Part shown: positions 3,301-56,130 of the stretch, piece after piece
Position numbering within the stretch: the first letter of the stretch is position 1
Layout of the letters: each line of letters begins with the position of its first letter
Assembly: GCF_964355755.1 (NCBI RefSeq)
Contig: NC_092676.1
Location: forward strand, 27,138,288-27,202,287
Direction of reading: 5' to 3'
DNA length: 64,000 nucleotides
DNA from: Antedon mediterranea
Lineage: Eukaryota; Echinodermata; Crinoidea; Comatulida; Antedonidae
Notes under the pieces: model-generated
What the model was told of the DNA's origin: nothing
Databases searched by the model: none
The model's input: the letters and a program-made list of their open reading frames with translations, nothing else
Position numbers and translations under genes: made by a program

Positions 3301-6300
3301 TATCCTGGACGATTCATAAGAAAAGGTAGTCACATCCCCTTGAAACTTTAAAATTGCAATATCATCCCCATCATCAAAGTTGTCACCCTTTGCCTTGATT
3401 GAGTATGATGCAGGAGAATTATTTGTTATTTTTTGTGAACATTCAGTTTTAAATAATGCTATTGTATTTAACACTACATGAATTTTGACTGCCGGTGTGT
3501 CTTTGTTGCTTTGATGTCGCCAAACTATCGGAAATGTTGAGTAAATGTAAATAGTTTGATCATCATCATTTTCACTGATAACAAATGTTTTATTGTTTGG
3601 TTGAATCTGAAAAATAATATGGTGATGATAATAAGATCAATCACCTAAAAATTTGATAATAGTGATGTTTATTTCATTGATTATATTTTAAGATAACTTT
3701 CTTGTTAAAAATTAATGAAGCAAACTTTTCTATAAAATACAAAAAGAATTATGATGAATTTTCCTTTTATTAACTTACAAGAAGTCCAGCAAAAAGGATG
3801 TTGCTTTGAACTCCCAATGAAAAAATGTCATCTCCACTGTTACTAAATTTCGCTCTAACTTCACATTGAATCTAAAATATAAAGAAAGCAAATGCTTGAA
3901 ATGATGAGGATGAGTTACTTATTCTATCAAAATACTATGGTACATATTGAAACTACTCGTATTAATTAAATATAATATTTTGAATGGAATACACATTGAC
4001 TGCTTTTTTATAATTTGCAACTTAGCTATTGAGCCATCTTTGTCTTTTTGAGTAAAAGTTGATTCAGACTTCAAAAGCTGTTAGATTAAGATTTTTATTT
4101 TTCTCTCTTTTGCTATGGATTTTATATTATGTCACCATGATATTCCGAAATAAAAAGATAAATGAAATGAAATGAAAAGAGAAAAAAAAAGTTTGATTGT
4201 CAACATTATTTGAAATTTGAAGAAGACTTGAAATTTTCTTAATGTGAAACAAAATGAGATTGGTGAAATTTGATAATACAATTTTAAAAAGAACATACTT
4301 CTGAGTTGAGTTTCTCATTTAGAATGCACTGGTTTGCTTCACAATCTTCACAATCACACTCATCACTAATAAACGCATCAATTTCATTCTCATTAGGTCC
4401 ATTAATTGTCTCATTATAAACAAAAAGACCATTTATAAACCATTTTACAAGAAAGTCCAATTGTTCTTGATATTTGTCAGATTTATAATGGCAAACTGTT
4501 GATATTCCAGTAGGTCTCTCCTGAAAAGTTAAAGTTGTGTTTCCTTCCAATTCAGGGAGATTATCTGTAATTCAAATATGCACGTCAAATCTTGGGAAAA
4601 AGTTTCTCATGCATTTTTCCTCACACATAGTTTTTAATGTGAAAAATGATAATGAAATCTACATGTTTAAAGTATAAGATAAAGAATGCATTACTTTTAT
4701 CTCCAAATCCAAAACAAACCTTTACATACACTATTTTTTAACTTTCATTGCCCCATAATTCAGATAGGACATTTTAGCAGTTGGTCCTGTGTACGCACAA
4801 ATACATTTTAGAAGAGAATAACTTACCACTACATGGTGGAAATGTAAATGGTAAAGTAGTTCCATTGTTGCATGGTAAAGCTGAATCTGAAGTGTTAAAT
4901 ATCAAATTTAATTACAATCTTTGAGAAAAAATAAAGTAAAGAAAAGAAAGGAAAAGTGCTTTCTGAAATCTTTTTTGCTATTTATTTGAATTTACGGTAT
5001 ATCGTTTTCATTTAATACCTGTTTGATAATTATTTGTATCTCCATTAAGATCTAATCAAAATGTAATCAAAATATTCTTCCGACATTTATAATTTGTATA
5101 GCACTTTTTTATTACGGTAATACTAATAATACAATACAATACAATATGATGAATTTTGAACTAAAATACCATATAATAATGTTTAAAGGTGATATTCATA
5201 CCTGTACAGTAGGCCATATTTGTTCCAGGTGATGGAGAAAGAAAGTGAACATAATAGACACCTTCTGTTGAACTACATGCCTTAATGCAAATAATTTGTT
5301 TGTTTGCACATGAATCTTGACCGTTATCAACACAGGTAGTCACGGTTTTAATACCATCACCAGTTCCAGGATAAACAGTACCTGAAAATATTAAATGAAA
5401 GATATATTCTCAAATCATGTCACGGTATTTCAAGGTTTGGGTCATATCAAACACATATATATTTGGGACATCACACAGGAGCATATTCATGATCATGATA
5501 ATTAATAATCAATCAATTATTGATATTAATTATATCAATATTAAAGTTTGTGTTTGGATGATAATATACCCAGTGAGAATGCTCCTGTCATTTTGATGAT
5601 CTGAATATAGCTATAAAAATGTTCTTGACACAATTATTTAAAAAAAACCAATTTTGATTTAAACTTTAGCAATAAAAATTGTTTATTGAAAAAGTAAAAG
5701 TATGATTGTGTCAATAAACAAACACAAATTACCACTTTGGAGCCGCATTGGGTATTTGGTGAAGAATAAAAGCTAATTTGATAAAATAATTTATAAAATA
5801 TGAAACATTATTGTGTTTATAAATAAGGTGATAATTTGATTATTGACTACAATGATGATGATAATGACAGGTAATCAATTACCACTTTTGAGCGACATTG
5901 GGTATTTGGTTCCACAGTGATACATTCCTGGACTAGAAGTTGGCATTTTGATATCAATCCTGTCACCCTCATTTCTAAATATATACCAACCATGCTGAAG
6001 AGTAAAATCGTTTATATAACTATTTCCATTAGTTGTATATTGGTTACTACGATGCCAGTTAACCACATCAAGTTGTGATTTGCACGGATCTTTAGCATTA
6101 TAATGACATGCTGCAAAGAAAAAGTAGAAACTCAGAGCCTCACACTTAGGTATAAACATAGACTCAATGAAAGTCCCACCGTAAGCTTCTTGCTCACTTC
6201 AAGCCCACATCAACCTCAAAAATTGAAGTTAATTCATCCATGCTCTCCACACCTATCTTCTGTAGGTTGCCCACACACCTTACAACCAAAATTAATAATA

Positions 6301-8849: not shown

Positions 8850-11800
8850 ATGAAACTCTACATTGTTTTGCTATACTTTATAGCAAAATTTATTTCAATA
8901 AATGGACATGGTAAATATTTATATGTTATTGTAAGTTAGATAGCATAATTAATATTTTTCTAAATATTATTTTTCTCATCAATCTTTTCATGTATTTTCT
9001 GTTGAATTTATACTATTATCTTTTCTTTATTATTTTAGCTCAACTTTTATCTTAATAGCTAGTTCTTATTTTTTCTATATTAAACAAAAAAAAATCACCA
9101 ATTAATATATTAGTATTACACATAAAGAAGTTGCAACCATGTTCATAAAACATCGGTTTAAAATCAGATTATTTCACAACTCATGTTATCTATGTGTTGG
9201 TAATTTTGAGATAAAACATTAAACGTTAAGTTTTAAAAACTGCATTTTAGTGTGCGGAGGCTGAATGGTTGATATTTTTGTTTTAGATTAACGTGAAATT
9301 GTATATATTCCATTCTACAGGATGTCATTTTACAAATGATGATGATCCTTGTGACACAAACCTCAAGTTGACTGACTGGCAGCGGAGTGTCCATCATGTT
9401 GCTGATTCTGAATATATTGACGATTTCAATCTTCCAACTGGATGGTACCGACTTATGAACGAAGGTAACAGGATCAACATCACCATGCCAACCATCAGGC
9501 AAGAGAGATATCACTGTGGAACCAAATACCCAATATGGATTGATGGTAATTAATGAAGAAAAGAATTATATTAAACAGAATTTAATTATTGTGGAGGGTT
9601 TAATCATGAATTTTCTCTTCATTTTCTCATTACATATCCAACTTCCTAACTTGCTGTGTCCCGCCATGATTTGTATGAGGGATGCGCATACTAAAGGAAG
9701 CATCTTGGTATGTCCCTGTGATACATCATCTTTAATAGAATTTACATGTTTTTTAGGTGTTTATCCAAATCTCTCTGAGGGGTATAAATCTCAAAAGACC
9801 TGCATTGATATTGGAAATTATGACTGTTATGAAGGACCATCAATTTGTATCAAGGCCTGCAACTCAACTGATGGTATCTACTTTGTACATCTGTTGTACA
9901 GTTCACCGGGAAGTAAAATGGCATATTGCACAGGTTTGTTTCTTTTATCAATTCTTCGCAGTTCAAAAGTATGTACAAATGAACTAAAACTATAGACACA
10001 AAGTATGGTTATATAATATTTTGCACTCAAGATTATGGTTAGGTTCAGGTTACATATCCTAAAATCAGTGGTTGCAACCTGAACATAGGCCTAAAACCTA
10101 AAGATAATCTCAGTAGGTGCGAAACTACAGTAGTGTCTTATATCAACAATTTTCAAATAGAGCTTCTTTTGGAGAACTTTTCTTATAAACAATGAAAATA
10201 GTTTAGATTTAGATTTATTTGTTTCCTCCCATTCTGTTATACATCCAGTATAAGTATACTGAGGTATAATGTAACGAGAGGAAGACAAACATTTAAAAAA
10301 TTGAATAACACATTCTTATATTTAAATATAATTGCAGATTCTCTTCTACCTTGCCAGAATGGAACAAATTCAGGAACAGGATTTTCACCATGCAGTTGTG
10401 AGTGTTTTAAGAAGGCCTACTACATATTACCTTTATCTCATTTTAGTAAATTAACTTGACTAGTAATTACTCTCCTCACACTTGAGCGGACACAAAATGG
10501 TTTTCCAGAAATTTTTTGGAATTTTACGAATAGCAAAGAATTCAGGATCTTAGTCATTTTTTATTTCTGAAAAATCTCTGGTTTTCCATTTAGAGGGAAC
10601 TGATCAGGAATTGTGTAGAAATTGTATGGGCCTAAATTAATAGTATTTCAATAATAATTAATTTTTAAAAAAAATGTATTAATTATTGTACAGATAGCTA
10701 CCCCATACTAAAAGGAAAACCAACAGTAGCATTCCAAGAAAAACCAACAGGACTTGCAGTCATATGTAATTATATAAATGGGAATATTGATGATGAAGAA
10801 ATGGATTTTCTTGTAAAGTGGTACATAAATGATCAATTTGTGTATGAGGAAGTTTATGAAAACAGTAACAATACAGTGTCTGCATTCATTAGTGATGAAC
10901 ATGATTGTGGAGATGGCGAGCCTAATCAATGCATTCTAAACGAGAGACTGAACTCACATGTAAGTACCCAAGGTTCCTTCTTTCTGAACACTATTTTGAT
11001 AATTAATTGAATCCCTTCATGATGGCATGCATTCCATTACTTGAAGTATTGATTACCTTTATGGCAACATTTATATACAAAATGAAATTCCTGTATTGTA
11101 TTTTAGATTCAATGTGAAATTAGAGCAAGATTCAGAAACACAAGCTATGTTGAGTTTCCACCAGGAGTCAAAAGCAACACCATCTATGCTGGGCTTATTG
11201 TAAGTTTATAAATAGGAACATTAAATGACAATGTTAAATTTCTATTTCTTGTCTAAAATAAAACATTTGTAATCACTTTGATATAACCTCAATGGAGATA
11301 CAAAATAAAATAAGCAAAACAATTAAGTAAAACAGCAAGAAAAATTAGCAAGGGCTTTCGGGCAACACTTAATGTGTATATATATTGTCATCAATTAATG
11401 CCAGTGATAAAATGACAATGTTAATTACAACATTAGCTACAGACATAATAAAATGTATTTTCCAGGTTCAACCTAATGCTACTGTGACTATAAGCGAAAA
11501 TGATGATGGCCAGGAATTTATTATTAAATCAACATTTCCAATAGTTTTACAAGAAGATACTCAAGAACCGGCAAAAATCAAAATACACATTAAAAAGACA
11601 GATAAGAATAATAATAATGTAGTAAACAGCTGTTGCCAATCGATAACAAATAATGCTCCTGCCAAGTACAATGTCTTAGCAATGCGAGACCACTACAATG
11701 ATGGGGATAAATATACCTCCATCCAGTTTACAGGCGATTCTACTACTTTTCAAGAGGCATCAAGAATATGGAGAGGTCATGAAAATGAATTGCCACCAAT

Positions 11801-20700: not shown

Positions 20701-23700
20701 TCATTGGCAACCACTTGCCCATCTGGACTAGCAGCAACAGCTGGGTTGGAACCTTCATCTGGTAATCGCTGTATGCTTGGGCTAGTTGGAAATTCAAACA
20801 CATCGATACCATCATCTTTCTTTGATTGTTCTTTTTGTTTTGTTCTTCCTACAGAAGCTAACATTTTCCTGGCCGAGTTGACTATTGCCATAACAGCCAG
20901 TGAATTTGGACTGCAATGCAAAAAAAAAATGTCTATGTTAGTACGAATGAACCAACGTTTGAAATCCTCACTTCTTCCACTTTGGCTTCGTTTGTACATT
21001 TGTTGGTTATACAAATCTACATGACTGGAATTGTACTGAGAAGGTTTTAACTACCTTTGAAACCCACTCTCAGGTAGGCATCTTTGCTAGTGTACAAACT
21101 AAAGATATACCACAAACACAATCAGCAATGGTTGCCATCAATCTTCCATGTTTTAAAAGCTAATAGACACAAAAATATGATTATTTATTGAAGCCAAATC
21201 TAAAGCTATGTCTACACTATCAAACTTTATGTGACAAAAAGGTGTGATGTGCCCAAATATGGTAGTGATATACCCAAGGTGATATGACATCATTATATCC
21301 ATATATGGGCACATAACATTTTTGTTTGTCACAAAAAGTTTGATAGTGTAGACACAGCTTTAGTCACAAGTAGATTACATATTACAGAAATTCATCACAA
21401 AAATTCCTCAAGTCAATAAACAAGAATAAGTCTTACTTTGGTGTTTTTGGTGGTACTGGTAGATTCACATGTTGTATGTTCTTTAGTGGTTGTAACACAA
21501 CTCGTGGTGATAGGTTTGCCACCATGTTAGGAGTAAGTGGGGCTTCAGGCTGCTGTAGAGGATGTAAACTCTGAAAAACAAATCAACAGAATAAAGCGCA
21601 AGATCAAGTCGATGTTTCACGACGCTTCATGCAGCAATGCACCAATCAATATGTGCATAGCCGTGTGAAAATGAAACATTGTTCGATTTGATTTGCCGGA
21701 GCTGGACTGGAAATGTGCCGCAGCAAGTATGAACGTCGCTTTACACATGGTTCTCAATTTTTTGTTTTATCAAAGGGAAAACTTGCTGTGAGGGGAAATA
21801 TATGTTTTAACACTACGGCCATCCGTCCTTATTCAGGGGACACAATAAAATACGGCCATCCGTCCGTATTCAGGGGACACAATAAAATACGGCCATCCGT
21901 CCGTATTCAGGGGACACAATAAAATACGGCCATCCGTCCGTATTCAGGGGACACAATAAAATACGGCCATCCGTCCGTATTCAGGGGACACAATAAAATA
22001 CGGCCATCTGTCCGTATTCAGGGGACACAATAAAATACGGCCATCCGTCCGTATTCAGGGGACACAATAAAATACGGCCATCCGTCCGTATTCAGGGGAC
22101 ACAATAAAATACGGCCATCCGTCCGTATTCAGGGGACACAATAAAATACGGCCATCTGTCCGTATTCAGGGGACACAATAAATACGGCCATCTGTCCGTA
22201 TTCAGGGGACACAATAAAATACGGCCATCCGTCCGTATTCAGGGGACACAATAAAATACGGCCATCCGTCCGTATTCAGGGGACACAATAAAATACGGCC
22301 ATCTGTCCGTATTCAGGGGACACAATAAAATACGGCCATCCGTCCGTATTCAGGGGACACAATAAAATACGGCCATCCGTCCGTATTCAGGGGACACAAT
22401 AAAATACGGCCATCCGTCCGTATTCAGGGGACACAATAAAATACGGCCATCTGTCCGTATTCAGGGGACACAATAAAATACGGCCATCCGTCCGTATTCA
22501 GGGGACACAATAAAATACGGCCATCCATCCGTATTCAGGGGACACAATAAAATACGGCCATCCGTCCGTATTCAGGGGACACAATAAAAGGTGTACCATA
22601 GTAAAGGTTCTACTGTAGTAAATACAGCTCATAATAAAATATAATTTTCATATAAAGTTCTGAGAAGGTTTCAGATGTATTATTTATTATTATATTGTAT
22701 ATTACAGAATGTCAAAGGTCAAACAAATATAAATCTAACATGAATTTCTTTATTTCTAAAGCTGTCTACACTATCAAACTTTGTGACAAATGTGATGTGC
22801 CCATATATAGACATGATGTCATATCAATACCATATTTGGGCATATCATTACCATATTTGGGCACATCACACTTTTTTGTCAAACTAGTTTGATAGTATCG
22901 ACTGAAGTGACAAATCTGTCAAATTAATAAGGTTGTATGGCTACCTGAGGTGTACCAGGTCTAGAATTCACCTGTGCTGGAGACTTGCCATGTACTGAAT
23001 GAGGAGAAGCATTGCTACTTGACTGCGGCGTATTGATAGACGCTGCTGCTATGGTCTGCTGACGGAGGGCTTCGAGTCTCATCTCTTCTTGCTGCTCGTC
23101 AAACTTGCGGAGGTCATACTCAATCTCGCTGGCCAATTGGTGATCAGCAGACATAATGTCTTAAGAAAAAAAGAGTTAAAAAAACAAATTACTAAAAGTC
23201 ATGTTAAAGAATTAAAAAACAATATAACAACAAAATAACACAATATAATATTTAAATAAAAAACGCTTCTTTTGTTTATAACTCACCTTTGACCTCATTT
23301 CTATAATCTTTCATCAATTCTTTTAAGTACATCATAAGATATTTCACCACAGGTGAACGATGTTTTTCCAGCTGTAATAAACAATAGAAAATAGTTAATA
23401 TCAAATCAAATGGCAGTGAAGACAAATATATAATGAAAATACATTAGAAAACAGGTACTATACAAATATACAGAATTTCTATGTTTTTCCTAAAACAAAT
23501 GATAATAAATCATACTTGACTTGACTTGACTTGATATAATGAAAAGAAAACAGAATTGGATATAAACCTTGGAAATAATAATAGATAGATATATATATAT
23601 ATATAATATAAATTTACAAAAATCATTTTCAACTTACTAAATGTTTTAGTGAGACAATGATAGGAACTATATTCTCAATAACGTTCTTTTTGACAACTTG

Positions 23701-45200: not shown

Positions 45201-48200
45201 ATCCATTAATTTGACACCAACTCAACAGCAGATTGTGAAATCAGTTCAAGAAAAGTTGAAAACGATGACTCCAGAGGAACAGCAAGCCTACATCAAGTCT
45301 CAGCAATCATTGCTACTCAACTTACAACAACAAAAACAGGTTAATATCATATGTTTACTGGTTTATGTAGGCTTAATCTACAGTTAAGTCCTAGTTTAAA
45401 CTCAGCCCAAAGAAGATGTGAGGGTTATAAGTCAGTCTGGGTATCTTCCATTGGAGGTCTTTAATTAAATTGCTGAATTAATATTATGTAGCTGTCATCA
45501 GGAGAATGGTGATGATCTCTGCACTGTGTGTACTACAATCTAATGATTATGAATTGTTTTGTTACAGGCTAAACAAGGGCAGACTTCTAGTGGTACTCAG
45601 TTTATCAAGGTAAGCACATACTCAATGTAATCAATAACAATTTCAAACAGTTTTTGTTTTGTATTGGTCAAAAGTTAGTCCATAAAAATTCATGCTATAA
45701 ATAATCAAAATTTTAATTTTGAAGACTGATTTAAATAATATACCATAAATAAATATGTAAGTTACTGTATATTTTTTTAGATTGAAAGTAAAGGCACAAA
45801 ACGTCCAGCACAGTACCAGCTTACAAGAAGTTCATTGTAAGTAATATAATTTCTTTTTTTCAGAGGATTTCTTTGAAATAAAAGAACACTTCAATATTTA
45901 AATGTAATGTAAATGTGTTTTAGTAACGCTGTATCGATATGTCCCCTATTGTGCCAATACAATATGGAGACATTGAAATATTGAATCCCAACACAATATA
46001 ATGGTGTCTATTTCTATTTTTATATTGGCGTATAACAATACATCAATCGTATATGGCGCTAAATGCACAAAGTGCTTCACATTATTACCCCAGTCATTTT
46101 TTGGATCAAACACGTATGGAAACATACTCCCATAATGTTTCAGCCAGTAATCATGTTGTGTTTTATGTTTATTTAGAATGCTCCATCAAGTAAAGCAAAA
46201 TCAAGAGAAGATGATTGGACCAGATTTAAAGACGCCATTTAAGAACTACAAGGACGCCATTCACCGACTCGTAGACTACCATGTGGTGACAGACCACACG
46301 CCCACCAGTGACCAACTCGAAGAAAGTAAGACACTATTTGATAAATAAAAATTTGATTATTTATATTGAACATCACTTTTATACCAGCGTACTAGTGTTT
46401 CGCACAAAATTTTTTTAAAATGAACAAGTCTTTGGACAGGATTTGAACACTATACTATAAAGCTACACTATCAAACTTTATGTGACAAAAAAATGTTATG
46501 TGCCCATATATAGACATGATGATGTCATATCACTACCCTATTTGCACATATCACTACCATATTTGGGCACATCACACTTTTTTTGTCAAACTAGTTTGAT
46601 AGTGTAGACAGAGCTTAAGATTGGTAGCCAACCACCAAGTTACAACCTCCCTGTTTACTTTGTCAAAGGAGTTTAATTGTGAATATGAGAATTAATTTTA
46701 ATTTTCTTTATAATTGTTGTTTAGTTGATGAGGCCTTTGAGGAGGTGAGCGCCACTATTCTGGAAAAGAAACAGAAAATGTATAACAAGTATCAGCAGTT
46801 AATTATGCAAGATAGTATGGTGAGTAAATAAATACAAATGTAATATGCACAAATAAATGGGTAGTGTTGCCCGAAAGCTCTGTAAATTTTTTAACATTTT
46901 ATTTTGTATCTCCATTGAGATCCAGCCACTGATACCCACAGCATTGTAATTTTTTTCATTGCTTATTTTATTTGTATCTCCATTGAGATACAGCCACTGA
47001 TATCATAGAGTATCACGGTGTGACGTCACAACGATAGAGGGTGCTGCTAGCCAACCAAAAAATGCGTTCAGCTTTACTATGTTGATAAACAGTAAAGATC
47101 TGTATTTCTATCAAATTATGTATCTTAGCTTGATTTTTTTTAACCTTAACTGCAGTTGAAGAATAAATAGATTATTAAAAACAAATATTTAGTGATCTTT
47201 TAGTAGGTATCCCAATGAAGCGGATTTTCGTTACCGCGATTTTAACACGTTCGTGAAAATTCAAAAAGTGACGTGTCTTTGAAGTTACAATGAACTTCTT
47301 GTAAGCTGGTACTGTGCTGGACATTTTGTGCCTTTAAAAATATACTATTTCTTATATACACATGTGAATAAAAATTATATGTCTGGAAAGATCTTGTTTA
47401 AGGGATTATTTTCATATATTTTTAATCTATGTTTATTAAATATTTTAATAGAAAACGCGAGTTAAAAATGAGGTACAAAAGCCGGCGAGCCGAAATCCGC
47501 GCGCTAAAAATAAATTTGGAAAACACCTACCCATTTTCAAAACACGATCGCACGAGGTCCATAATAGGTGGTGGAGTAATTTTTGTTGCATGTTATCAGG
47601 CTTTAAATACTCTTTATTTTGATATGTAAATCGGTTATTATTATTATGTACATCCGCCTCAAATGTCAATTTTAACGATAAAAATTGAATTTTTTAGTCT
47701 TTCTCATTATCAAAATCTGGCTAATTTAGTATTGAATTGAAGCTAATTTATATTTCTGTTTGATAAACCACATCGTTTTATTTGACTTTGCGTGGACCTC
47801 GTGCAAAGAGGCCAACAAGACCAACCACTGAAAAAAATAATCCCTACCATAAATATCAGTGTTTACCATTTTCCTTACGGGGGGGATTCAGTTCTCCGCT
47901 TATTACTAAATTACCGTCGCCCAGACAATGTGCATGGTATGCATGTATTAGCGCGTTAATTAATGATTGGATAACCCCTGCAGTGGACTGTTCCATTTTC
48001 TGAACTAGTCTTCGCCGTACACGAGGCATGTCGAAAAATGTCGCCTCTCATGGAATATTTGCTTCGAAACGTCAATTTTACCGATTTATTAAATTATTTA
48101 ATAAGTGGAATATTTATAAATCTACTATATAAAGCAAGTACGTTAGGAAGAAATGTACCGAAGAAATTTAAGAAGCTTTGATTTTGCTATGCAGCAGCCG

Positions 48201-51200
48201 TAAGCCATTCTATGTAGGCGGCCGAAACGCGCTTTGGCCTGTGTTGCTGTTGTATGTCTACGCTGTTTCTAGGCCTAAATTTTATTCCGTATATTTCAAT
48301 TCAAAGTGCAACTTTCGGTTAGAATTATCGAAAGAGAAATAAAATTAAACATGTTACAATTATACCATTGAGGTAATTACTTTGTTAAATAACAAATTTC
48401 TTCCCGATATTTCTTAGGCAGAATTTTCGTCAGGCTTTTATTTAGACCTTAGCTAGGGGCCTATATAACTTAACTTGTAGTAGGCGCAGCCGAGTCTACG
48501 TTCGGCCCGGCGCTCCAAATGGAATCGAACACATAATAAGCACGGGCTTAATTCTTATTTTTGGCGGTTCGAAAATCAATTAAAATAATATATGATTATA
48601 AATATAACTTTAAATACTAGAATTATTTAAAAAATGTATACTTACGAAAAATAATATTTAATGAAAAGAAACAATACCCACACAGTTTTTTAACGCAATA
48701 TTTTTTTTTCCACATTTTAACATTTTTTAACAATATTTTATGTTGTATTTCAGAATTACCTACCTGTCAATATAAATAACCTTACTAAAATACATATTAC
48801 ATTTTATGCAATGCAAAAAAAAAGAAGTTAATTCACACATTGGTTCAAAAGTTATGAATCATTTAAAGACAGGAACTTTTTGGGCATTTTTGAGACATTG
48901 GGAAAATCACGCGTAAAAAGCCCTCGGACGAATTGTATCTATGGGTTTGGAAAAAATAAGAACTTTAAAATTATTAGTATAAAAGTTATAACCCTTCAAA
49001 AATGGGTTCAAATATAATTAGAAAAAGTGCCATTTTTCAAGCAAAAATCACTGTTTTTTGGGCACTTTAACGGACCATAACTTTTGAATGGATAATCCGA
49101 TTTCAATCATTTAAATTGCAAAAGTTTATGTTCAGTAAGTTCCTTCTGATTAACTGAAAGAAAAAGTACCATCATTAATTTGAATTTTTACATTGGGATA
49201 CCTACTTTTAGTGTTTTTATTAAAAATTATTAAGTTTTAAAATGACTACTTCAATAAGCCTATTCCAAATCATTGGTGATCTTGGAGTCACTCAGGCAGG
49301 CTGAACGCATTTTTGGTTGCGCTAGCAACCACGCAGCGCCACCTACCGCTGTGAGGTCAGCACCGTGATACTCTATAGCATTGTCATTTTTTCATTGCTT
49401 ATTTTATTTGTATCTCCATTAAGATCCAGCCACTGGTATCATAGCATTGTCATTTTTTCAGTGCTTATTTTATTTTGTTTCTCCATTGAGATCCAGCCAC
49501 TGATATCATACCGTTATCAATTTTTCAGTAATTTGACTTTGGATTTCAATATAGTTAATAGACAGGTTCCATTTCTCAAAAAACGGCCTAGAAAACGAAT
49601 CAAGAAGCATTTTTGGGTAGAAGCTGGGATCCACTTGGTTTAGGATATTTCGACCTCGCTGATTACGAATATGGCGGATCCCAAGCGAAATTCGGCCATC
49701 TAAGCCCTTAATTTGCATAATTAAAAATGGCGGCCATTTTTTATAATTACCCTATATCTCGAGAACCACTAGTCACAGATAATTAATTTTGGTGTCAAAA
49801 TGTTTTAAATATATGTTTTTATATTCACTTTAATGACACATTTTCTCAAAAAATTGATGCAAGTCGTATTTCTGACATTTTGACCTTTGACCTTGATTTA
49901 TCGTATCTCAGTAACCAATAATCGGAGAGACACGAAATAGGGCTCAAATTGTTCAGAAACTATACATTCATATTTATTATAATGAAATGTTTTTACAAAA
50001 AATGGCCGATTCTACAACTATTGACCTTTGAACTATTAGTCAAATATAATAATATAATAATAATATAACTTTGAAAATTGTGGTCTTATGAATTTTTTTT
50101 TCTTTTTAAATTGTTTAAAACATGTGTGTTTCTATCCAGTCTAATGGCATATTTTGTACAAGAATGGCCGATAGTATGGTTATTGACCTTTTAACTACAG
50201 CATAGGCCTACTGTATACTAAATATAATATAATTGCATAACTATGAAATTATTTATACACAATAATAATTAGTAAAATTATAAAATTCACTGCCATCAAA
50301 TATGATGTGTTATGATTTATATAGATTTAAAAAGGAATTTGAATACGCAAGTTACATTTTTTGAAATTTGAAATTTGAAATTACCTGCCATCAATATGAG
50401 GGAGTGTGCTTATAGATTTTCTAAAATGTGAACATGTCAGCTACATTTGGAAATTACCTGCCATCAATATGATGGATTATGATTATAGATTTAAATAAAA
50501 ATTTGAACACGTAACCTACATTAGAAAATTACCTGCTATCAATATGATGGATTATGATTATAGATTTAAAAAAGAATTTGAACACGTCAGCTACATTTGG
50601 AAATTTGGAAATTACCTGCCATCAATATGATGGATTATGATTGTATAGTACCTGCCATCAATATGATGGATTATGATTATAGAATTAAAAAAGAATTTGA
50701 ACACGTCAGCTACATTTGGAAATTGGGAAATTACCTGCCATCAATATGATGGATTATGATTATAGATTTTAAAAAGAATTTGAACACGTAAGCTACATTT
50801 GGAAATTTGGAAATTACCTGCCATCAATATGATGGATTATGATTGTATAGTACCTGCCATCAATATGATGGATTATGATTATAGATTTAAAAAAGAATTT
50901 GAACACGTAAGCTACATTTGAAAATTACTTGCCATCAATATGATGGATTATGATTGTATAGATTTAAAAGAAAATGTGAACACGTACGTAAGCTACATTT
51001 GGAATGAACATGTTAAGGGCATCAGTTAAGATCATTCATGCAAAGGTTTCCGTCATCTTTAGCGTTGTTACAGCGGCATAAAGCTGTACATGGTAGTTTT
51101 GACTTCTTGCACCTACATCTATTGGTTATGTATCGTGTCTTGCATCCACAATAAATCATCTCTAACGAAGCAGTAGGAATAGCTTCATTTTTCAGAAGCA

Positions 51201-54200
51201 CTGGTTGAAGTTTACCATTAGATAGCTCCCAACCAAAATATGTTGGTGATGGCAAATGCTAGATTGGCGACGATACAGCTTTTTTCCATACGAGTGCTTG
51301 GAAGTGTGCTCTTTTTATATGTTGGTGCACTGCATCGCTTGTTGGAGGTAATGCCTTTTTTTTTAAAGCCTAACTTTATTGGTACTTTCAACTTGACCAA
51401 CACCGTAAACGTAGCAAATGAATCTTTCCGATTTCATAATAACTTGGTCACTGATAGGTTTTCTCCCAGGTCTTTAATTAGTTCATACCTTTTTTAATAC
51501 TTCCCATGCCGATGCCTTTGAGTGACCACTTAGATATGAGCAGTGAAGAGTTAAATTACTGTATGTATGTATTAATGTAATTTAACTCTTCCCTGGATAT
51601 GAGGTAGTATCGCATCCACTAATAGTGTGGAATGGAATCAGTGCTTTTGCAGAACCCTCGGGCAAGGCGTGAAAAATGTCTTTTATAGATACTTTCTTTT
51701 TTTGGATGTCCCTGTCATCATCCATTTGGATACCATGCTTTGGTAGTGAGACACTAGAATCACTAGTACGTCTGTATCCCTAGAAGCAACTACAACTGTG
51801 TCGTATCGGACATTGGCAGCATGACAAGTCTCGTGTCCGATTCTTCATGGTCTGACCAGAGACAACGTATTCGTGTACAATTTTGATGATTTAACAACTG
51901 ATTCTTTCATAAATCCACCAGCTGTGACAATTTCTTTGTCTATAGGAGCTTGACGAATCAACTCCTCTGATAGAAATCGTGTCAGATCTGCATTATTATC
52001 TTGTAATGCCAACAAGTTTGACCAGCAATTTGGCAGCGGTATTTCACCACTTTCTATAATTCGACGAATTGGTCTCTGTGTTTTGGTTCATCTTTGTCTG
52101 GTGGTGTCCTTTATCGACAGTTTTAAGTTAGGCATGCCATGTTTAAAAAAAAAAAAAAATTACCTCCAACAAGCGATGCAGTGCACCAGCATCATATAAA
52201 AAGAGCACACTTCCAAGCACTCGTATTGAAAAAAGCTGTATCGCCAATCCAGCATTTGCCATCACCAACATATTTTGGTTGGGAGCTATCTAATGGTAAA
52301 CTTCAACCAGTGCTTCTGAAAAATGAAGCTATTCCTACTGCTTCGTTAGAGATGATTTATTGTGGATGCAAGACACGATGCATAACCATATAGATGTAGG
52401 TGCAAAAAGTCAAAACTACCATGTACAGCTTTAATATGCTACTGTAACAACGCTAAAGATGACGGAAACCTTTGCATGAATGATCAAAACTGATGCCCTT
52501 AACATGTTCATTCCAAATGTAGCTTACGTGTTCACTATTCTTTCAAACCTATACAATTATAATCCATCATATTGATGGCAGGTAATTTCCAAATTTCCAA
52601 ATGTGGCTGACGTGTTCAAATTCTTTTTTAATTCTATAATCATAATCCATCATATTGATGGCTGGTACTATACAATCATAATCCATCATGTGATGGCAGG
52701 TAATTTCCAAATGTAGCTGACGTATTCAAATCCTTTTTTAAATCTATAATCATAATCCATCATATTGATGGCAGGTAATTTTCTAATGTAGCTTATGTGT
52801 TCAAATTCTTTTTTAAATCTATAATCATAATCCATCATATTGATGGCAGGTAATTTCCAAATGTAGCTGACATGTTCACATTTTTAAAAATCTATAATCA
52901 TACTCCATCATATTGATGGCAGGTAATTTTAAATTTCAACAAATGTAACTTGCGTGTTCAATTTTTTTTTAAATCTATATAAATCATAACACATCATATT
53001 TGATGGCTGTGAATTTTATAATTTTACTAATTATTATTGAGTATAAATAATTTCATAGTTATGCAATTATATTATATTATATTCAGTATACAGTAGGCCT
53101 ATGCTGTAGTTTAAAGGTCAATAACCATACTATCGGCCATTCTTGTACAAAATGTGCCATTAGACTGTATAGAAACACACATGTTTTAAACAATTTAAAA
53201 AGAAAAAAAAATTCATAAGACCACAATTTTCAAAGTTATATTATTATTATATTATTATATTTGACTAATAGTTCAAAGGTCAATAGTTGTAGAATCGGCC
53301 ATTTTTTGTAAAAACATTTCATTATAATAAATAAGAATGTATAGTTTTTGAACAATTTGAGCCCTATTTCGTGTCTCTCCGATTATTGGTTACTGAGATA
53401 CGATAAATCAAGGTCAAAGGTCAAAATGTCAGAAATACGACTTGCATCAATTTTTTGAGAAAATGTGTCATTAAAGTGAATATAAAAACATATATTTAAA
53501 ACATTTTGACTCCAAAATTAATTATCTGTGACTAGTGGTTCTCGAGATATAGGGTAATTATAAAAAATGGCCGCCATTTTTAATTATGCAAATTAAGGGC
53601 TTAGATAGCCGAATTTCGCTTGGGATCCGCCATATTCGTAATCAGCGAGGTCAAAATATCCTAAATCAAGTGGATCCCAGCTTCTACCCAAAAATGCTTC
53701 TTACATCATATTTCAGAGGAAATAGAACTTGTCTAATATATAGAATACATTTTTTGTGAATGCCCTATGGCCTGTATTCATGCATAACTCTAACATATAT
53801 TTGATTTAAATTAATTTTGTGTACCAAAATTAAATTGTTTACAATGCAATGCAACTGCTGCTATTAAACTTTATCAAAATATGATGTGCTCATATATGAC
53901 ATGATGTCATATCACTACCATATTTAAGCATATCACTATCATATATAGGCACATCACACTAAAGTTTGATAGTGTAGACAAATTTGTAGTTACTATTAAT
54001 TCAAAAAGTTCGGAGGTTTTTCTACTAGTCTAGAATTTGTGAGTGTTTCCAAATTTAATTCCTTTTATCATTTTTCTTAACTTTAGAAAACTAGCGAGTC
54101 ATCTGAGATGGTAATGTTGGGTAGAATGATGTTACAAGATGAGAAGAATCATTTTGAGGAAGAAAAACAAATGCCTCAGGATCAGTTAAGTAAGTTGTAA

Positions 54201-55710: not shown

Positions 55711-56130
55711 TATAAACAAAGAACTTATAACACAAGAATCTTCTGTTCGTCCGAAGTGCGTAACAATTTCGAAAGGCATTGTGGGATAGAATAGAGCTAT
55801 GGGTGGCACCATTGTGAGCCATGGAGTAGGGCGCCCGCATCAAATTAGAAAGTCAATATCATAGAGGGGATCTGCTAATGCTCTAGGGGGTATAGAGTAA
55901 TTGACTGAGGAGTAGGGTGCCCGCATCAAATTAGAAAGTCAAAATCATAGAGGGGGTCTGCTGATACGCTAGGGGGGTAGAATAATTGACTTCCTAGTTT
56001 GGAGGGGGCGCTGCTCCATGCTGTGAAATGGCGTCGCCCAGTTTGACCTTTTAACCCTGTACTTCCGATACTGTGTTTTGAATGCAAATTGAAGAACAGG
56101 AGATTCTTGTGTTATAAGTTCTTTGGTATA
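55711..56130. mobile_element. 420-bp MITE with 97-bp internal duplication
   Basis: Ends tataaacaaagaacttataa / ttataagttctttggtata, continuing cacaagaatcttctgttc / gaacaggagattcttgtg. The interior holds two copies of a unit of about 95 bp: agtagggcgcccgcatcaaa, ttagaaagtcaa, catagaggggatctgct, gtaattgactgagg. GC-rich relative to flanks. Confidence 0.8.

What the first reader, a model, noticed from the sequence alone, without database searches (positions are those of the whole stretch)
47285..47335. A DNA element inside a BICRA-like intron carries an antisense copy of an exon of the same gene
Seen directly: 51 bases equal the reverse complement of the exon 6/intron 6 boundary (45790-45840) with one mismatch, and lie inside an element with 12-bp perfect inverted tips. 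Intron bases in the copy argue against a spliced-RNA source. Inference: the element captured the fragment during local movement, or gap repair copied it in. In the BICRA pre-mRNA the copy can pair with exon 6 across about 1.5 kb and cover its 5' splice site, so it could affect exon 6 splicing, make double-stranded RNA or promote a circular RNA.
Basis: partly seen in the sequence, partly recalled or inferred. Interest (0 to 1): 0.72.

Follow-up and report, generated by a model that had tools for sequence, protein, structure and literature searches.

The report
Repair scar copying a nearby exon
A 49-base scrap of a nearby BICRA-like exon was copied backwards into a jumping-gene copy in a downstream intron of the same gene, almost certainly by DNA repair or replication that switched template; it is a clear example of a known kind of mutation, and no function is shown.

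Summary
Window 47285-47336 is the reverse complement of 45789-45840 (52 aligned bases, one mismatch). A 35-base core occurs only twice in the 354-Mb assembly: in the exon and in this copy. The host is a young ~2-kb non-coding DNA transposon (47204-49204; tips TAGGTATCCCAATG; intact 7-bp target duplication CTTTTAG). At least 40 other copies of the inner element cover the insertion point and none has the insert; their uninterrupted sequence GAAG-TTA-AAAA shows a clean net gain of 49 bp. TTA lies at both edges of insert and donor, so there is 3-bp microhomology. Best explanation: after the transposon had landed here, a break or stalled fork was healed by briefly copying the exon 1.4 kb away in inverted orientation (polymerase-theta-type or SDSA repair, or fork template switching). 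Capture during transposition is unlikely. In silico the two copies pair well in pre-mRNA, but this does not make the 5' splice site less accessible than shuffled controls, and no RNA data were available. A new member of a known kind (templated insertions), with low to moderate interest.

The parts
45781..45836 (+). Donor exon of the BICRA-like (GLTSCR1 family) gene, peptide IESKGTKRPAQYQLTRSSL, followed by 5' splice site GTAAGT
   Evidence: Reading frame continuous with flanking exons (sequence); joined exons hit Pfam GLTSCR1 PF15249, E=1.3e-18
45789..45840 (+). Donor segment that was copied: 48 exon bases plus GTAA of the intron
46177..46325 (+). Next exon of the same gene, lying between donor and insert
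   Evidence: splice sites and open frame read from the sequence; GLTSCR1 domain
46725..46819 (+). Following exon of the same gene; the nested elements lie in the intron after it
   Evidence: splice sites and open frame; GLTSCR1 domain
47005..49376 (+). Outer MITE (~380 bp when uninterrupted) with 16-bp perfect tips ATAGAGTATCACGGTG, split by the inner element
   Evidence: inverted repeat I6; at least 39 other genome copies, uninterrupted in the aligned ones
47197..47203 (+). Left 7-bp target-site duplication CTTTTAG of the inner element
   Evidence: 7-bp TSDs at the sister copies
47204..49204 (+). Inner ~2-kb non-coding DNA transposon, tips TAGGTATCCCAATG / CATTGGGATACCTA, young family (0.25-1.0% from majority)
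47285..47336 (-). Antisense copy of the donor; net insertion 49 bp (e.g. 47288-47336), bounded by TTA on both sides; one mismatch (CG to CA, at 47323)
   Evidence: absent from at least 40 sister copies
48933..48934 (.). Site of a second private change of this copy: 71-bp deletion with 2-bp (TT) microhomology
49205..49211 (+). Right 7-bp target-site duplication CTTTTAG of the inner element

Best explanation
A local templated insertion. After the inner transposon had inserted into the MITE in this intron, the DNA broke (or a fork stalled) at GAAG-TTA-AAAA inside it. A 3' end finishing in TTA annealed to the complementary TAA just inside the donor intron (45838-45840), 1.4 kb upstream and in inverted orientation. 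About 49 bases of exon were copied, and the new end was rejoined to the other side, either at the second TTA or bluntly. No transposon bases were lost. Shown: source, private status, order of events, clean junction, 3-bp microhomology. Inferred: the break and the enzyme (polymerase-theta end joining, SDSA, or fork template switching/MMBIR). The insert is most likely a neutral passenger with no selected role.
For: Only two matches genome-wide, donor and insert. Every sister copy covering the site has the uninterrupted sequence. The donor is 1.4 kb away, where a random donor in 354 Mb would have a chance of about 1e-5. TTA is shared at both junctions between donor and acceptor. The inner element has an intact TSD, so insertion preceded the event. 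The same copy has another private repair-type change, a 71-bp deletion with TT microhomology. The mismatch is a CpG transition, like 4 of this copy's 9 private substitutions, as expected from decay after copying. Literature: POLQ templated insertions of 2-35 bp in mouse class switching come from adjacent or many-kb-distant templates, and POLQ insertions in cells often start and end with microhomology (PMC7454005); MMBIR junctions have 2-5 bp microhomology and can be inverted (PMC2621351).
Against: 49 bp is longer than the 2-35 bp cited for polymerase theta, and 1.4 kb is beyond the +/-100-nt short-range template-switch window (PMC7954356), so the exact pathway is open. Microhomology totalling 3 bp has a chance of about 8% by my own estimate. 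The locus was seen in one assembly only.
Confidence: 0.85

Rival explanations
1. The transposon captured the exon fragment during its own movement: an earlier insertion near or in the gene picked up the fragment and then hopped locally to its present site.
For: Transposons are known to carry gene fragments (established knowledge); donor and host share the gene.
Against: No sister copy carries the fragment. The event needs two local steps. The fragment sits 81 bp inside the left end with no transposon bases lost.
Confidence: 0.05
2. The patch was copied from BICRA RNA (unspliced, or spliced with a one-base addition) by reverse transcription during break repair, as proposed for class 2 templated sequence insertions.
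For: The copy is mostly exon (48 of 52 bases). Only one intron base is diagnostic, because TTA is already in the acceptor. The RNA route is described in PMC5110952.
Against: Origin 1.4 kb away on the same chromosome favours a DNA template in cis. The diagnostic C does not fit spliced exon-exon RNA. No poly(A) and no TSD of 5 bp or more.
Confidence: 0.07
3. The inverted copy has a role: its RNA pairs with the exon, covers the 5' splice site and changes splicing, editing or circular RNA output of the BICRA-like gene.
For: Predicted duplex -88.5 kcal/mol; mean donor-insert pairing probability 0.956 in a 1.85-kb pre-mRNA fold.
Against: In the same model the 5' splice site is no less accessible than with shuffled inserts (mean unpaired 0.26 versus 0.12). 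Only 4 intron bases of the site lie in the duplex. A 1.2-kb, 95% inverted repeat lies at 49602-53702, most likely in the same intron. The element is young and there is no sign of selection.
Confidence: 0.04
4. Assembly or library artefact (inverted chimera).
For: Inverted chimeras with short microhomology occur in amplified DNA (established knowledge).
Against: The sequence leaves and returns at the exact next transposon base, carries a mismatch, and the copy has other private differences. A chimera would continue into inverted DNA rather than return.
Confidence: 0.03

Closest known systems
Polymerase-theta templated insertions (TMEJ), e.g. PMC7454005
   Same: Short copied insert, source nearby or kilobases away, microhomology at start and/or end, no large loss at the site
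   Different: 49 bp is longer than the 2-35 bp cited for mouse class switching; enzyme untested here
Class 2 templated sequence insertion polymorphisms (Onozawa and Aplan, PMC5110952)
   Same: Germline-transmitted patch from elsewhere with microhomology, no poly(A), no LINE-type TSD
   Different: Those are described as derived from distant regions, with an RNA patch proposed; here the donor is 1.4 kb away and a DNA template is enough
Inverted template switching (four-point model, PMC7954356) and MMBIR/FoSTeS (PMC2621351)
   Same: Reverse-complement copy of nearby sequence, return to the original template, 2-5 bp microhomology
   Different: The short-range scan looked within about +/-100 nt; here 1.4 kb. 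MMBIR events are usually much larger

Membership tests
Templated insertion from DNA break repair / template switching | Insert matches a unique donor elsewhere in the same genome | tested here: met
   Two hits only in 354 Mb with up to 3 mismatches
Templated insertion from DNA break repair / template switching | Ancestral uninterrupted site known, insertion derived | tested here: met
   At least 40 sister copies without the insert
Templated insertion from DNA break repair / template switching | Microhomology at one or both junctions | tested here: met
   TTA shared by donor and acceptor at both edges; 3 bp, modest against chance
Templated insertion from DNA break repair / template switching | Dependence on polymerase theta, Rad51 or fork restart factors | not testable with these tools
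   needs genetics
Class 1 TSIP / LINE-mediated retrocopy | TSD of at least 5 bp and poly(A) tract | tested here: not met
   3-bp TTA only, no poly(A) belonging to the insert
Transposon gene-fragment capture | Captured fragment present in mobile copies or carried to other sites | tested here: not met
   Absent from all other copies examined

The most novel reading that the evidence does not exclude
A DNA-repair patch has created, in one step, a built-in antisense to an exon of the same gene, which modulates BICRA-like pre-mRNA (exon skipping, editing or small RNAs).
Probability: 0.03. Interest if true: 0.6.

Novelty: new member of a known kind. Interest (0 to 1): 0.27.

Why it matters
It is a clean example of how a near-perfect exon-intron inverted repeat can arise in a single repair event in an animal germline: donor, acceptor, ancestral state and order of events are all visible. 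High-copy young transposons act as ready-made recorders, because each copy supplies the unbroken reference. That makes the rate and reach of local inverted template switching measurable in non-model genomes. The locus itself is probably neutral.

Tried and rejected
Transposon-wide presence of the 51 bp: rejected. Further copies of the exon fragment in the genome: none. A second local inverted pair in the window (55717-55748 / 56094-56125): rejected as a parallel case, because both arms belong to a dispersed repeat. Other private insertions of at least 12 bp in 30 other aligned copies (about 60 kb): none, so no rate could be estimated. Splice-site masking: not supported by the fold. Species identity: a bryozoan was considered (Membranipora, 339 Mb and 11 chromosomes, PMC10290214), but the assembly size differs (354 Mb); left open.

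Full report
OBSERVATION. The pair is exact as described. 47285-47335 is the reverse complement of 45790-45840 with one mismatch, and the match extends to 52 bases (45789-45840 / 47285-47336) before similarity stops on both sides. A search of the whole 354-Mb assembly with a 35-base core and up to three mismatches found two places only, the exon and this copy, and no control hits. Chance is excluded.

GENE. The donor lies in a short exon (45781-45836) that joins in frame with its neighbours. The joined exons encode the GLTSCR1 domain (PF15249, E=1.3e-18), so the BICRA-like label holds. The insert lies in the intron after exon 46725-46819, two exons downstream of the donor.

HOST ELEMENT. The outer one has 16-bp tips ATAGAGTATCACGGTG (47005-47020 / 49361-49376) and is a ~380-bp MITE with at least 39 other copies; in those that could be aligned it is uninterrupted. 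Inside it sits a ~2-kb element, 47204-49204, tips TAGGTATCCCAATG / CATTGGGATACCTA, flanked by the 7-bp duplication CTTTTAG. Sister copies also show 7-bp duplications. The family is young: aligned copies differ from the majority by 0.25-1.04%. I saw no long open reading frame in it, so it is probably non-autonomous; I did not assign a superfamily.

IS THE 51 BP PART OF THE FAMILY? No. In 30 other copies aligned base by base the site reads GAAG-TTA-AAAATATAC without the insert (one copy has a single-base difference beside it). A search with a sister copy spanning the site found 40 places, all of uninterrupted length, none being the window copy. The net gain here is 49 bp with no loss of transposon bases. 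TTA stands on both sides of the insert and at both ends of the donor segment, so there is 3 bp of shared sequence in total. By a simple estimate of mine (30% match per base) 3 bp or more would occur by chance in about 8% of cases, so the microhomology is supportive but not proof.

ORDER AND AGE. The inner element keeps both 7-bp duplications, so it had inserted before the patch was added. The copy has 9 private substitutions in 1,948 compared bases, 4 of them CpG transitions. The single mismatch between insert and donor is also a CG-to-CA change, as expected from decay of methylated CpG after the copying (inference). The same copy carries a second private change, a 71-bp deletion at 48933 with TT shared at the junction, a typical end-joining scar.

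MECHANISM. The simplest account is a break or stalled fork inside the transposon, with a 3' end finishing in TTA that annealed to TAA at the exon/intron boundary 1.4 kb away, copied about 49 bases in inverted orientation, and returned. Polymerase-theta insertions with microhomology at start and end, and with templates adjacent or many kilobases away, are documented (PMC7454005). Template switching with 2-5 bp microhomology is the MMBIR model (PMC2621351). Short-range inverted switches are prevalent in great apes but were sought only within about 100 nt (PMC7954356). I cannot tell these pathways apart. Class 2 templated sequence insertions in humans show the same kind of junctions, with an RNA patch proposed (PMC5110952). 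Here an RNA patch is possible but not needed.

FUNCTION. The 52-base duplex is strong (-88.5 kcal/mol) and dominates a fold of 45600-47450 (mean pairing 0.956). The 5' splice site is nevertheless not less exposed than in three controls with shuffled inserts (0.26 versus 0.12 unpaired). Only four intron bases of the site are in the duplex. The region also holds a 1.2-kb, 95% identical inverted repeat (49602-50804 / 52511-53702), probably in the same intron, which would be a far greater source of double-stranded RNA. With no RNA data the fair reading is a neutral passenger.

BACKGROUND. Among window repeats of at least 28 bases and 94% identity, the one other local inverted pair that looked comparable (55717-55748 / 56094-56125) is part of a dispersed repeat. 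A 28-bp pair at 3852-3879 / 11099-11126 was not followed. In about 60 kb of sister-copy sequence no second private insertion of 12 bp or more was found, so the event is not frequent in this family.

VERDICT. Real, well explained, and a new member of a known kind: a local, inverted, templated insertion. Its value is as a clean worked example and as a way of using young transposons as recorders of such events.

Noticed in passing
49602-53702: Very large inverted repeat: 1.2 kb arms, 95% identical, 1.7 kb apart, containing internal tandem repeats; probably in the same BICRA-like intron.
   Followed up: no
47204-49204: Young ~2-kb non-coding transposon family with 7-bp target duplications and tips TAGGTATCCCAATG; at least 40 near-identical copies; superfamily not assigned.
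   Followed up: partly
48933: Private 71-bp deletion in the window copy with TT microhomology; a different copy (L002) has a private 21-bp deletion in the same stretch.
   Followed up: partly
46869-47007 and 49373-49510: Tandem ~67-bp repeat units (CTCCATTGAGATCCAGCCACTGATATCATA...) into which the MITE inserted.
   Followed up: no
21814-22589: Tandem array of 37-bp units (TACGGCCATCCGTCC...), 97-99% identical between units.
   Followed up: no
3852-3879 and 11099-11126: 28-bp, 96% inverted pair 7.2 kb apart, apparently not low-complexity; not checked against the genome.
   Followed up: no
55717-55748 and 56094-56125: 32-bp inverted pair that looked like a second local copy; both arms belong to a dispersed repeat with hundreds of candidate places.
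   Followed up: yes
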